64,000 nt of DNA, from contig JAOPJY010000001.1 in the NCBI GenBank assembly GCA_025517425.1, positions 978,217 through 1,042,216 on the forward strand, given 5' to 3'. Positions 11,099-63,897 of the stretch are shown one piece after another. The notes below the pieces were generated by a model that saw nothing but the letters and a program-made list of their open reading frames with translations, was not told the origin of the DNA and searched no databases. The stretch's first letter is position 1. Each line of letters begins with the position of its first letter. The position numbers were made by a program, and so were the translations under genes. The DNA comes from Halobacteria archaeon AArc-dxtr1 (GTDB lineage: Archaea > Halobacteriota > Halobacteria > Halobacteriales > Natrialbaceae).

Positions 11099-12505
11099 AT
11101 GAGTACGCAGGAGCAGTCAACCAACGCGACGACGACCGCAGCGGGTGCGCCGGACGTGGTCGTCGTCGGAGCCGGAACCGCCGGCTGTTACGCCGCGGCG
11201 ACCGTCGCCCAGGCCGGATACGACGTCGTCGTCCTGGAGCGCAAGTCGGCCGAAGAGGCGGGCCACATCGCCTGTGGCGACGCCCTGAAGGGAGCCGACG
11301 CCTTCCCGGACGCCATCCCGAAATCCCAGCTGGAGCCCGCCTTTACGAACACGGGCGTTGACCATGGCCGATTCGAGATCCCCCAGGAGGACACCGTCCT
11401 CGAGATTCCGGTGCCGGGCGAACTCGCGGTGATCGACCGCTGGGAGTACGGCCGACTGATCATCGAGGGCGCAGAGCAGGCAGGCGTGCGCTTCGAGTAT
11501 GACACCGTCGTCCAGGACGTCCTCCAGAACGACGACGGCCGCGTCGTCGGCGTCCAGGCGACAAAAAAGGGAACGCCCCAAACCTACGAGGCCGAGATCG
11601 TCGTCGACGGCGCCGGCTCGCTGTCGGTCCTGCAAGACACGGTCGACTTCTCTACGTCCACGTTCGACACCAACGTCACCTACTCGCAGTTCTGCTCGGC
11701 CTACCGAGAGATCGTCCACGTCGACGAGCCCGTCGAGTGGTCGGACGCACTCGTGTTCAAGCCGACCGAACGAGCCGCGGGCTACCTCTGGTACTTCCCG
11801 CGCACCGAAACCGAGATCAACGCCGGTCTGGGCTTCCAGATGACCGAAGAGCCGATGAAACTCGTCGAGGATCTAAAACGGGACCTCCGGGACCGACCCG
11901 AGTTCGCGGGCGCCCGCGTCGAGGATAAACTCGGCGCCGCCCTCCCGACCCGTCGGCCCTACGACTCGGCGGTCCACCCCGGGTTCGTCGCGGTCGGCGA
12001 CGCCGCCGGCCACGTCAACCCCACGACAGGCGGCGGTATCGCCGGCGCGGCGTACGCTGGCAAGTACGCCGCGGACCAGGCGATCGAGGCCCTCGAAACC
12101 GGCCAGTACGGCGAGGACGTCCTCTGGAAGTACAACGAGCGCGTGATGGACCACTTCGGCGCCCGTTACGCCGCCTTAGACGTCTACAATATCCTCTCGA
12201 CAGCGGTCGACGTCGACGACCTGATGGGACTGCTGGCGGCGATGCCTGGCGACAAGCTCGCCGACGCGCTGTACTCCGGCAGCACGGATATCGGCCTCAA
12301 GCTCAAACTCGAGGCGTTGGTGAAGAGCCGCGGCCACTGGGGCACCATCTGGAACCTCTACCAGACGAAACGGCGCGCAGACGAGTTGCTTTCCCACTAC
12401 GAGACGTATCCGTCGAGCCCTGATGGCTTCGACGCCTGGCAGCGCCGCCGGGACGAGCTGATGGAGGACGTCTACGAGACGACAGGCGCCGATCCGAAAT
12501 ACTAG
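11099..12505 (+). CDS. Geranylgeranyl reductase family FAD-dependent oxidoreductase
   Basis: 468 residues. N-terminal FAD motif VVVVGAGTAGCYAAATVAQAG then VLERK, the family CGDALKG segment (Cys/Gly/Asp near residue 60), VDGAGSLSVL, and the second FAD contact GDAAGHVNPTTGGGI. These proteins saturate isoprenoid chains of archaeal lipids (digeranylgeranylglycerophospholipid reductase) or of quinones. The C-terminal ~130 residues are helical and match the length of haloarchaeal members. The substrate cannot be read from sequence. It ends just before the hairpin array at 12.5 kb. Confidence 0.88.
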   Translation: MSTQEQSTNATTTAAGAPDVVVVGAGTAGCYAAATVAQAGYDVVVLERKSAEEAGHIACGDALKGADAFPDAIPKSQLEPAFTNTGVDHGRFEIPQEDTVLEIPVPGELAVIDRWEYGRLIIEGAEQAGVRFEYDTVVQDVLQNDDGRVVGVQATKKGTPQTYEAEIVVDGAGSLSVLQDTVDFSTSTFDTNVTYSQFCSAYREIVHVDEPVEWSDALVFKPTERAAGYLWYFPRTETEINAGLGFQMTEEPMKLVEDLKRDLRDRPEFAGARVEDKLGAALPTRRPYDSAVHPGFVAVGDAAGHVNPTTGGGIAGAAYAGKYAADQAIEALETGQYGEDVLWKYNERVMDHFGARYAALDVYNILSTAVDVDDLMGLLAAMPGDKLADALYSGSTDIGLKLKLEALVKSRGHWGTIWNLYQTKRRADELLSHYETYPSSPDGFDAWQRRRDELMEDVYETTGADPKY

Positions 12506-12510
12506 ACACC

Positions 12511-12774
12511 GAAATTTTGTTCTGCGGTCTGCGACGGCGACGGCAGCTGCGCTGCCGCACGCCGTCGCGTCCCTCGACAAAATCATCAAAAGAGCGCGGA
12601 GCGCTCTTTTGGACAGCGAGGGACCGTAGGTCCCTCGGGCAGTCGACGCTTTGCGCCGACGACCTCGCGGGATCTTCGATCCCGCTCAGTTTCGATCAAA
12701 AGCACTCCTCCTTCTGTTCCGGGCCGCTTCGCGGTTCTTCACATCAGTCGTCGGCCCGCTCGGGCCTGCGGCCC
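12511..12774. repeat. Array of perfect hairpins, each with a 3-5 nt loop
   Basis: The 297-base gap between two converging genes is filled with palindromes. A nested stem at 12514-12583 has arms ATTTTGT/ACAAAAT, GCGACGGCG/CGCCGTCGC and CGGCAG/CTGCCG. Then follow 12588-12610 (AAAAGAGCGC-GGA-GCGCTCTTTT), 12617-12637 (CGAGGGACC-GTA-GGTCCCTCG), 12642-12660 (GTCGACGC-TTT-GCGCCGAC, one mismatch), 12667-12685 (GCGGGATC-TTC-GATCCCGC), 12722-12736 (GGCCGC-TTC-GCGGTT) and 12762-12774 (GGGCC-TGC-GGCCC). Arms differ in sequence while the architecture repeats. No protein frame is credible here. At least 12588-12610 could end transcription in both directions. Confidence 0.85.
12588..12610. terminator. Bidirectional hairpin terminator candidate
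   Basis: A perfect 10-bp stem with a GGA loop starts with AAAA and ends with TTTT, so either strand would read as a stem followed by a U run. It lies 83 bases after the reductase stop (plus strand) and 193 bases after the M20 hydrolase stop (minus strand), between converging genes. Confidence 0.5.
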
Positions 12775-12802
12775 TCGCGGTGAATGTTAGTGAATCTACA
12801 CT

Positions 12803-14071
12803 CTACGACCGCCCCGCCCCAACCCGCTCGATCGCTCCCGAGAGGACCTCCACGCCGTGGCGGATGCTCTCTTCGTCGACGTCGAACGTCGCGGTGTGGT
12901 GCCCACCTGGGTGATCCGTGCCGATGCCGACGTAACAGGCGTTGCCGCCGTTTTGCTGTACCTCGCGCATGAGGAATGTTGCGTCCTCGCTGCCACCGAG
13001 TTCGGAGCGCTCGAGAACGCTGTCGACGCCGTCGACGTCGCTTGCGACGTCAGCGACGGTCCGGGCGAGGTCGTCGTCGCTCGTCGCACTCGGCGCCTCC
13101 GCGCCAGTTTCGATTTCGACCTCGCAGTCGTGCATTTCGGCGGCCGATCGGATGATCCGGCGGGCGTGGCGCTCGACGTGGTCTTTGAGAGCTGTCGTTT
13201 CGCCGCGTACCTCCGCGACGAGTCGGGCCTCCTCGGCGATCACGTTGGGGGCCGAGCCGCCCTCGACGACGCCGACGTTGATCCGGGTGGCGCCGTCGGC
13301 ATGGCGCGGGATGCCATGAAGGTTCGTCACCGCCGTGGCGAGTGCCTGGTTGGCGTTGCGCCCCTGCTCGGGATGGCCGCCGGCGTGAGCGGACTCGCCC
13401 GTGAACGTCGCCTCGAGGTGGGCGACGGCGAGGAAGCCGTCGATGCCAGCGACGACCTCGCCGGTTGGGTGGTCGAGGCCGACGTGGACCGCGAACAGGT
13501 GGTCGACGTCGGTCAAGTGCTCGCTTTTCGCCATCGCCTTGCCGCCGCCGATAACCTCCTCTGCGGGCTGGAAGAACACTGTGAACGTCCCCGAAAAGTC
13601 ACTCTCGACAATCTCACGGAGTACACCGACACCGATAGTCGCGTGGGCGTCGTGCCCACAGGCATGCATCGCGCCCTCGTGTTCGGACCGGAACCCCTCA
13701 GCCGCCGGACGGTGGTCGGAATCGGCTGACTCCGGGCGTGGGAGGGCGTCGATGTCGACGCGTAGTCCGATCGTTGGTCCCTCACCGCGTTCGATACCGG
13801 CGATAGCACCCGTGTACCCTCCCTCGAGCCGGGTGAGTACGTCCCTGTCGACGTCGTATCTACTCGCCTGCTCGTACCACGCGTCCAGCTCCGACTCGTC
13901 GGGAACGGCGAGCCGATGATCGGTTGCGAGCGCGTCCGGGCCAACGAAGAGTCCGTCCACGTCGAGTCGCTCGAGTTCGGCGACGATCCGCGCCGTCGTG
14001 TAGAACTCACACCAGGCGGGTTCGGGCCGCCGGTGGAGGTCGCGTCGCAGCGAAATGAGCGTCTCGTCCAT
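12803..14071 (-). CDS. M20 family amidohydrolase (AbgB / IAA-amino acid hydrolase-like)
   Basis: 422 residues. Zinc-hydrolase landmarks: LRRDLHRRPEPAWCEF at the start, LRVDIDALP, EGAMHACGHDAHATIGVG (metal-binding Cys/His and Asp), FQPAEEVIGGGKAM with the catalytic Glu pair, HVGLDHPTGEV and a late GIGTDHPGGHHTATFDVDEE. The family removes acyl groups from N-acyl amino acids or cleaves p-aminobenzoyl-glutamate. ATG at 14071 gives the standard N-terminus; 16 upstream codons are dropped. The substrate is unknown; the presence of pab genes in the window makes aminobenzoyl-glutamate a speculation only. Confidence 0.85.
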   Translation of the reverse strand: MDETLISLRRDLHRRPEPAWCEFYTTARIVAELERLDVDGLFVGPDALATDHRLAVPDESELDAWYEQASRYDVDRDVLTRLEGGYTGAIAGIERGEGPTIGLRVDIDALPRPESADSDHRPAAEGFRSEHEGAMHACGHDAHATIGVGVLREIVESDFSGTFTVFFQPAEEVIGGGKAMAKSEHLTDVDHLFAVHVGLDHPTGEVVAGIDGFLAVAHLEATFTGESAHAGGHPEQGRNANQALATAVTNLHGIPRHADGATRINVGVVEGGSAPNVIAEEARLVAEVRGETTALKDHVERHARRIIRSAAEMHDCEVEIETGAEAPSATSDDDLARTVADVASDVDGVDSVLERSELGGSEDATFLMREVQQNGGNACYVGIGTDHPGGHHTATFDVDEESIRHGVEVLSGAIERVGAGRS

Positions 14072-14179
14072 ACGTACGGATCGATAAGCGAAATGAAAAG
14101 CGTGCCGGGTGGTCAACAAATAGTGAATTTACAGCGATACGTTCAGCGAGAGTGGTTCCTCAGTACCTCGAAAGTGAAC

Positions 14180-63767: not shown

Positions 63768-63897
63768 TTTCTGCCCGCGAATTCTAACCGACGAGCGAAG
63801 CGAGTCGCGTTCGTGAGCGGGCAGAAATGCAGCCGCAAAGATTCGAATCAGGGAGGAGCGTCGCTCCGACCGTGGTTCGTAATCTGCGCCGGCCCAT
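63747..63897 (+). repeat. Duplicated tRNA 3' end (integration-scar type direct repeat)
   Basis: The tRNA end GTTCGAATCTGCGCCGGCCCAT (63747-63768) recurs with one inserted T at 63875-63897; AATCTGCGCCGGCCCAT is identical in both. Between them are TTTCTGCCCGC (63768-63778) and its inverse GCGGGCAGAAA (63819-63829), GATTCGAATC (63840-63849) and a GGAGC-GTC-GCTCC hairpin (63855-63867). This is the layout left by integration at a tRNA gene. No protein gene is seen from 63898 to the window end. Confidence 0.75.

What the first reader, a model, noticed from the sequence alone, without database searches (positions are those of the whole stretch)
12511..12774. Hairpin array: seven stem-loops with 3-5 nt loops in one intergenic gap
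Almost every base of the gap between the geranylgeranyl reductase and M20 hydrolase genes belongs to a palindrome. Stem sequences differ (AT-rich, GC-rich), but the architecture (8-10 bp, 3-nt loop) is constant, so the shape, not the sequence, appears to be selected or generated. A nested 70-nt stem opens the array. It could be a cruciform/recombination site, a stack of terminators or a non-coding RNA.
Basis: seen in the sequence. Interest (0 to 1): 0.75.

Follow-up and report, generated by a model that had tools for sequence, protein, structure and literature searches.

The report
Haloarchaea-wide hairpin module at gene ends
The hairpin-packed gap is one copy of an apparently undescribed DNA module that salt-loving archaea carry in several to dozens of copies just behind genes; its folded shape is preserved while its stem sequences change, and it most likely works as a two-way stop signal for transcription.

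Summary
In detail: window 12506-12780 is almost entirely palindromic (fold z about -7 on either strand). It is not a local accident. It is one of 9 copies in this genome of a dispersed element found by a covariance model in 131 of 194 haloarchaeal genomes (47 of 65 genera sampled). Constant linkers alternate with hairpins whose stems are rewritten between copies but stay paired: in 19 aligned copies 94% of cells pair and 12 pairs change on both sides.

The selected fold lies on the minus strand, opposite to the upstream gene. There the linkers form tandem G.A pairs, and the minus strand folds better in 129 of 139 copies. The element starts 3-9 nt behind the stop codon of core genes (geranylgeranyl reductase, TFS, thermosome, gyrB, uL16, purF), and also behind tRNAs. 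Neighbouring stop codons are TAA/TAG in 80 of 86 cases, against 50% TGA elsewhere. Convergent gene gaps are enriched threefold.

Conserved T4 tracts lie behind the gene (plus) and directly after hairpin P2 (minus). I therefore favour a bidirectional transcription terminator. A mobile ssDNA-hairpin element is the main rival. Rfam, the phage and viral collections and the searched literature hold no match. No transcript data were available, so function is inferred.

The parts
12503..12505 (+). TAG stop codon of the geranylgeranyl-reductase-family gene (11099-12505); element begins directly behind it
   Evidence: family TIGR02032 above cut-off
12510..12519 (+). P1 left arm CGAAATTTTG with the plus-strand T4 tract (12515-12518), 9 nt behind the stop codon
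   Evidence: TTTT/TTTA in the left arm of 24 of 26 copies from other families
12531..12568 (-). hp1: variable hairpin (inner stem 12542-12556)
   Evidence: the same linkers with other stems
12578..12583 (+). P1 right arm CAAAAT (pairs with 12514-12519)
12587..12611 (.). optional extra hairpin, 11 bp, loop GGA
   Evidence: shared with L002, absent from most copies
12617..12637 (.). optional extra hairpin, 9 bp, loop GTA
   Evidence: shared with L002
12642..12660 (.). optional extra hairpin with one mismatch, loop TTT
   Evidence: shared with L002
12667..12685 (.). optional extra hairpin, 8 bp, loop TTC, flanked on the minus strand by GA...GA
12696..12719 (-). constant block TCAAAAGCACTCCTCCTTCTGTTC = 3' arm of P2 plus the U4 tract (12698-12701) on the minus strand
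   Evidence: exact core in 94 of 125 family genomes; AAA(A) abuts P2 in 25 of 26 copies from other families
12721..12737 (-). hp2: variable tip of P2
12738..12755 (-). constant block = 5' arm of P2 (minus: CCGACGACUGAUGUG, tandem G.A with the block at 12696-12719)
12756..12780 (-). hp3 (minus: CCGC-GA-GGGCC-GCA-GGCCC-GA-GCGG); right end of this copy
   Evidence: model R1 match on minus at genome 990914-990996, E 5.3e-13
12803..14119 (-). convergent M20-family amidohydrolase gene; its transcript would run through hp3 and P2 to the minus-strand U4 tract

Best explanation
The array is a member of a dispersed haloarchaeal element that marks the 3' ends of transcription units. SHOWN: fixed linkers plus sequence-variable, base-paired hairpins; strand polarity (fold favoured on the minus strand through tandem G.A pairs); position directly behind stop codons and tRNA ends; T4 tracts in both directions; enrichment in convergent gaps. 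INFERRED: it is a bidirectional transcription terminator or insulator. The upstream gene's RNA ends at the T4 tract a few nt behind the stop codon. Transcripts from the opposite side (the M20 gene here, antisense transcripts elsewhere) first make hp3 and P2 as nascent RNA hairpins and then meet U4 directly after P2 (...GGAGGAGUGCUUUUG) and again in P1, the layout of a hairpin-plus-U-tract terminator. That would explain why the selected fold is on the strand opposite to the gene. Optional hairpins are spare modules gained and lost by recombination.
For: Family: 9 copies in this genome; 94 of 125 family genomes, reversed-pattern control 0 in every genome; 131 of 194 class genomes. Pairing: slide control 94% vs 25-53%, 53 double-change cells vs 12.4 shuffled; hp3 dinucleotide pairs GC/GC, GT/AC, GG/CC, AC/GT. 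Strand: minus folds better 129/139 (RNA) and 136/139 (DNA); TC/TC on plus (= GA/GA on minus) 111 times, GA/GA on plus not among the listed classes. Place: upstream gene co-oriented in 103 cases vs 22 opposed; T4 typically 5-9 nt behind the stop; tRNA-Arg and tRNA-Met just upstream in L269 and L281; directly behind purF in Natrinema thermotolerans. T tracts conserved in other families. Convergent vs tandem 29:37 against 28:111 background, p 7e-4. H. volcanii terminates at T stretches, and a tested hairpin stopped 59% of transcripts (PMC7237163).
Against: No transcript 3' ends were available. About half of the copies lie between co-directional genes, where no minus transcript is expected a priori. 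T4 is short for a strong terminator. Stems are nearly free of wobble pairs on either strand, and loops are mostly 3-nt with C-G closure, which resembles stable DNA hairpins (C-GNA-G, PMC4686876) more than RNA tetraloops. A simple terminator would not need about 250 nt. The stop-codon bias is not explained.
Confidence: 0.48

Rival explanations
1. A non-autonomous mobile element that moves as single-stranded DNA: the minus strand folds into hairpins recognised by shape by a transposase or recombinase, as in IS200/IS605-derived PATEs, REP/RAYT systems or integron attC sites, and it settles behind stop codons because that is harmless.
For: Dispersed copies; presence/absence at orthologous genes; mosaic modules shared between unrelated loci and across families; DNA-like C-NNN-G triloops (125 of 131) with GNA 135:43 on minus; the two-state link with the stop codon (TFS: 17 of 17 TAA/TAG with the element, 8 of 8 TGA without) suggests the unit arrives together with the stop codon.
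Against: No Y1 (HUH) TnpA in this genome, though the search finds it in H. volcanii. No terminal repeats or constant outer boundary on the right. Same genes carry it across genera and, for TFS, across families. Not found in phage records or viral contigs. No clean empty site recovered.
Confidence: 0.25
2. A structured antisense small RNA made from the minus strand that acts on or near the upstream gene's 3' end, or in trans through the constant loops and linkers.
For: Minus-strand covariation with tandem G.A motifs typical of RNA; C.A on plus (= G.U on minus) in 47 copies at one P2 pair.
Against: No conserved AT-rich promoter beyond the far end; no Rfam match; few wobble pairs in the hairpin stems; many copies per genome at unrelated genes.
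Confidence: 0.13
3. A DNA-level structure (cruciform or template-strand hairpins) at gene ends that takes up supercoiling or blocks polymerases, without an RNA role.
For: Near-perfect Watson-Crick stems, C-G-closed triloops, convergent gaps.
Against: A cruciform alone does not explain the conserved T4 tracts, the fixed distance to the stop codon or the strand preference.
Confidence: 0.09
4. Neutral by-product: palindromes made and kept perfect by template switching during replication, with no function.
For: Perfect arms, variable stems, loops in either orientation.
Against: Template switching would turn the conserved G.A mismatches into Watson-Crick pairs; linkers, T tracts and position are conserved across families.
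Confidence: 0.05

Closest known systems
Intrinsic (hairpin + U-tract) transcription terminators; T-stretch terminators of Haloferax volcanii (PMC7237163)
   Same: T tract a few nt behind genes and tRNAs; on the minus strand a stable hairpin directly followed by U4; enriched between convergent genes.
   Different: One conserved, dispersed ~250-nt family with constant linkers, tandem G.A pairs and several hairpins; the hairpins lie behind, not before, the T tract of the gene it follows.
REP/BIME elements of enterobacteria (bacterial interspersed mosaic elements)
   Same: Dispersed intergenic palindromes in 3' regions, mosaic of modules, tens of copies per genome.
   Different: REP stems are conserved in sequence; here linkers are conserved and stems vary. 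No GTAG-type motif was sought and no RAYT-like (Y1) gene is found in this genome. The distance to the stop codon is nearly fixed.
PATEs and SMRs of Haloquadratum walsbyi (PMC3119063)
   Same: Short non-coding palindrome-bearing repeats of a haloarchaeon without a transposase gene.
   Different: PATEs have near-terminal palindromes related to IS605-type transposons; here palindromes fill the unit, positions are tied to gene ends, and the genome has no Y1 transposase.
Integron attC sites (from general knowledge)
   Same: Strand-specific folding, structure conserved over sequence, position behind stop codons.
   Different: Upstream genes are fixed core genes, not cassettes; the attC boxes and an integrase were not sought.

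Membership tests
Intrinsic/hairpin terminator | stable RNA hairpin immediately upstream of a U tract | tested here: met
   Minus strand: P2 helix then U3-4 in 25 of 26 copies of other families; in the window hp2/hp3 then CUUUUGAUC
Intrinsic/hairpin terminator | RNA 3' ends map to the U tract | not testable with these tools
   no transcript data held
T-stretch terminator of haloarchaea | T run close behind the gene end | tested here: met
   T4 mostly 5-9 nt behind the stop; same layout behind tRNA genes
PATE / IS200-IS605 derived element | Y1 (HUH) transposase available in the genome | tested here: not met
   PF01797: none in own genome, control positive in H. volcanii
PATE / IS200-IS605 derived element | near-terminal palindromes with defined outer ends | tested here: not met
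   palindromes fill the unit; right ends differ between copies
REP/BIME | dispersed extragenic palindromes in mosaic arrays | tested here: met
REP/BIME | conserved palindrome sequence | tested here: not met
   stems vary, linkers are constant
Known Rfam RNA family | score at or above the gathering cut-off | tested here: not met
   10 loci at gathering; window copy at E <= 1 gave only chance-level hits
MITE | terminal inverted repeats and target duplications | tested here: inconclusive
   P1 is an internal inverted repeat; no terminal repeats or duplications seen, and no clean empty site found
Integron attC | R/L boxes and an IntI integrase | not tested
   considered by analogy only

The most novel reading that the evidence does not exclude
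A haloarchaea-wide class of genetic element in which evolution preserves a strand-specific folded form (hairpins stitched by tandem G.A pairs and C-G-closed triloops) while nearly all stem letters turn over. The unit, including the stop codon, behaves as an exchangeable 3'-end cassette of genes and tRNAs that insulates transcription units in both directions.
Probability: 0.33. Interest if true: 0.87.

Novelty: new variant of a known kind. Interest (0 to 1): 0.72.

Why it matters
How archaea end transcripts is still poorly understood, and hairpins are usually given a small role. A conserved, structured, strand-polar module behind core genes (TFS itself, gyrB, thermosome, uL16) in most sampled haloarchaea, unannotated in the one annotated record inspected and absent from Rfam and the searched literature, would give a defined class of 3' ends to test in Haloferax or Halobacterium. 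It is also a natural experiment in which shape is kept while stem sequence is free to change.

Tried and rejected
The repeat finder gave no repeats or inverted pairs for 12300-13000, so own scripts were used. Rfam: nothing. Plain plus-strand mRNA 3'-UTR structure: rejected as the main selected fold because plus has TC/TC mismatches where minus has tandem G.A. A general haloarchaeal tandem-G.A hairpin outside the elements: only about 4-fold over AG/AG and equal on both strands, so it is mainly an element feature. Minus-strand promoter beyond the far end: no AT peak in 27 full-length copies. Insertion-site reconstruction from filled and unfilled GGR and TFS orthologues: flanks too diverged, or another gene inserted. 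Viral carriage: the two viral hits are chance matches without the element's flanking blocks; none in phage records. A short literature search by the constant sequences found no haloarchaeal paper.

Full report
OBSERVATION. RNA folding of 12490-12800 gives -148.9 kcal/mol against -113.5 for shuffles, z -7.4. The minus strand of 12506-12790 gives -151.3, z -7.25, and DNA parameters give z near -6.4 to -6.5. The seven hairpins have the coordinates listed under parts.

IT IS A DISPERSED FAMILY. A search of the window's own genome with the 303-bp gap returned ten further matching places, among them a second extended copy (L002, 78% identity over 277 bases) and several partial ones. Reading them side by side shows fixed blocks and variable hairpins: stop codon - AACGAAATTTTGCTCTGCG - hp1 - CCTCGGCAAAATTTCGATCAAAAGCACTCCTCCTTCCG - hp2 - CACATCAGTCGTCGGCCCGCTCG - hp3 - TCGCGG, in 27 longer copies followed by CCTGCCCTCCCCCGGGTCG - hp4 - CTCCCGGCCA. 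Extra hairpins may stand between hp1 and GATCAAAAGC; the window copy and L002 have four. The core pattern AAGCACTCCTCN{15,45}GTCGGCCCG occurs in 94 of 125 genomes of the same family, while its backward control occurs in none. Named hits include Natrinema, Haloterrigena, Natronorubrum, Halovivax, Haladaptatus, Halobacterium, Halomarina and Haloferax denitrificans.

STRUCTURE IS CONSERVED, SEQUENCE IS NOT. Mutual information between the two sides of hp2 peaks at antiparallel positions. In 113 hp3 hairpins, the dinucleotides around conserved TC/TC positions vary as complementary pairs (GC/GC 72, GT/AC 10, GG/CC 6, AC/GT 6; inner: AC/GT 32, CC/GG 14, GG/CC 11, GC/GC 8, GT/AC 8). In an alignment of 19 minus-strand copies with the named structure, 94.0% of cells pair, against 25-53% when the partner is slid; 12 of 21 pairs change on both sides; the covariation score is 0.411 against 0.163 shuffled. 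The rows were chosen by an exact core pattern, so invariance of the core letters themselves is partly by construction; the variable pairs are not affected by this.

STRAND. On the plus strand the conserved non-Watson-Crick positions read TC/TC; on the minus strand they read GA/GA, that is, tandem G.A pairs: hp3 = CCGC-GA-GC-GA-AC-[GGA]-GT-GA-GC-GA-GCGG, and P2 = C-GA-C-GA-CC-GA-UGU-GAA-[hp2]-GGA-ACG-GA-GG-GA-G-GA-G. Minus folds better than plus in 129 of 139 copies with RNA parameters and 136 of 139 with DNA parameters. Within the elements TC/TC is by far the commonest mismatch class on plus (111); GA/GA on plus is not among the listed classes. Loops are mostly 3 nt (131 of 173 perfect hairpins of at least 7 bp, against 290 of 1244 outside) and C-G closed (125 of 131 against 155 of 290). 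GNA loops outnumber their complement 135 to 43 on minus over all hairpins; with pure Watson-Crick hairpins the bias is only 46 to 29. C-GNA-G is a known very stable DNA mini-hairpin (PMC4686876), so the fold could act as DNA or as RNA; few wobble pairs occur on either strand.

PLACE. Where gene calls allow, the gene upstream runs into the element (103 cases against 22; some of the 22 look like calling errors). The T4 tract lies mostly 5-9 nt behind the stop codon. Upstream genes confirmed by profile include acyl-CoA dehydrogenase, thermosome (Cpn60_TCP1), DNA polymerase DP2, uL16, EngB GTPase, gyrase B, TbsP and transcription factor S; purF in an annotated Natrinema replicon is followed directly by the element. 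In another haloarchaeal family two of five inspected copies follow tRNA-Arg and tRNA-Met. So the element marks ends of transcription units, not only of reading frames. Element-bearing gaps are convergent more often than other gaps of at least 120 nt (29 convergent: 37 tandem against 28: 111, p 7e-4).

STOP CODON LINK. Stop codons next to elements are TAA 54, TAG 26, TGA 6; background in the same DNA is TGA 237, TAG 122, TAA 115, p 2e-15. Among orthologues of transcription factor S, all 17 genes with the T4/P1 unit end in TAA or TAG and all 8 without it end in TGA. GGR orthologues behave almost the same, with L081 (TGA, element present) and L189 (TAG, none) as exceptions. This points to gain and loss of the 3' end as a unit, or to selection on the stop codon; I could not recover a clean empty site.

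SPREAD. A covariance model of hp3+P2 on the minus strand (R1) finds 9 copies in this genome at E below 1e-3, and matches in 131 of 194 genomes and 47 of 65 genera of the class; up to 30 copies per genome were found in selected genomes. In these distant copies AAA(A) abuts P2 in 25 of 26 and TTTT/TTTA stands in the P1 left arm in 24 of 26, although the letters around them differ.

MECHANISM. The conserved T tracts in both directions, the position behind genes and tRNAs and the excess in convergent gaps favour transcription termination. In the plus direction the T4 behind the gene would end its RNA, in line with the T-stretch terminators of Haloferax volcanii (PMC7237163). In the minus direction the hairpins come first and the U tract follows, which explains why selection acts on the minus-strand fold. 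In the window this would serve the M20 gene and shield GGR. This step is inferred; no transcript data were available.

ALTERNATIVES. Mobility is suggested by mosaic exchange (two inverted copies 1 kb apart share hp2 and hp3 but not hp1) and by presence/absence, but this genome has no Y1 transposase, no viral or phage copy was found, and no constant right end was found. An antisense RNA lacks a visible promoter. A neutral template-switch origin does not explain conserved G.A mismatches.

KNOWN OR NEW. Rfam has no match; papers on haloarchaeal repeats in the searched library describe PATEs, SMRs and MITEs (PMC3119063) but not this. The absence of a description is limited to the open-access library and to a few searches. 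I file it as a new variant between dispersed extragenic palindromes and terminators.

Noticed in passing
L178-L207 and L287-L316 (GGR and TFS orthologues): Stop codon identity (TAA/TAG versus TGA) follows presence or absence of the element almost perfectly; cause unknown.
   Followed up: partly
L013/L014 (G000:C1:1064907 and 1065933): Two inverted copies 1 kb apart with the same hp2 and hp3 but different hp1, suggesting module exchange.
   Followed up: no
L030, L042, L152, L086, L133: An optional module ATGACGA-hairpin-CGAACCACG recurs in Natrialbaceae and Halobacterium copies.
   Followed up: no
L003, L060, L169 (behind hp3): Another recurrent block GGTGAACGGCGTC..TCGGGTTCTTCGAACCGCTCACTCGCCGA follows hp3 in thermosome and other copies instead of the hp4 block.
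   Followed up: no
L003, end of contig G000:C1 (1746851): One element copy lies within about 330 bases of a contig end, possibly an assembly break at repeats.
   Followed up: no
L269, L281 (genome G159): Copies sit directly behind tRNA-Arg and tRNA-Met genes.
   Followed up: partly
window 63791-63805: An isolated tandem-G.A hairpin ACGAGCGAAGCGAGT outside the element.
   Followed up: no
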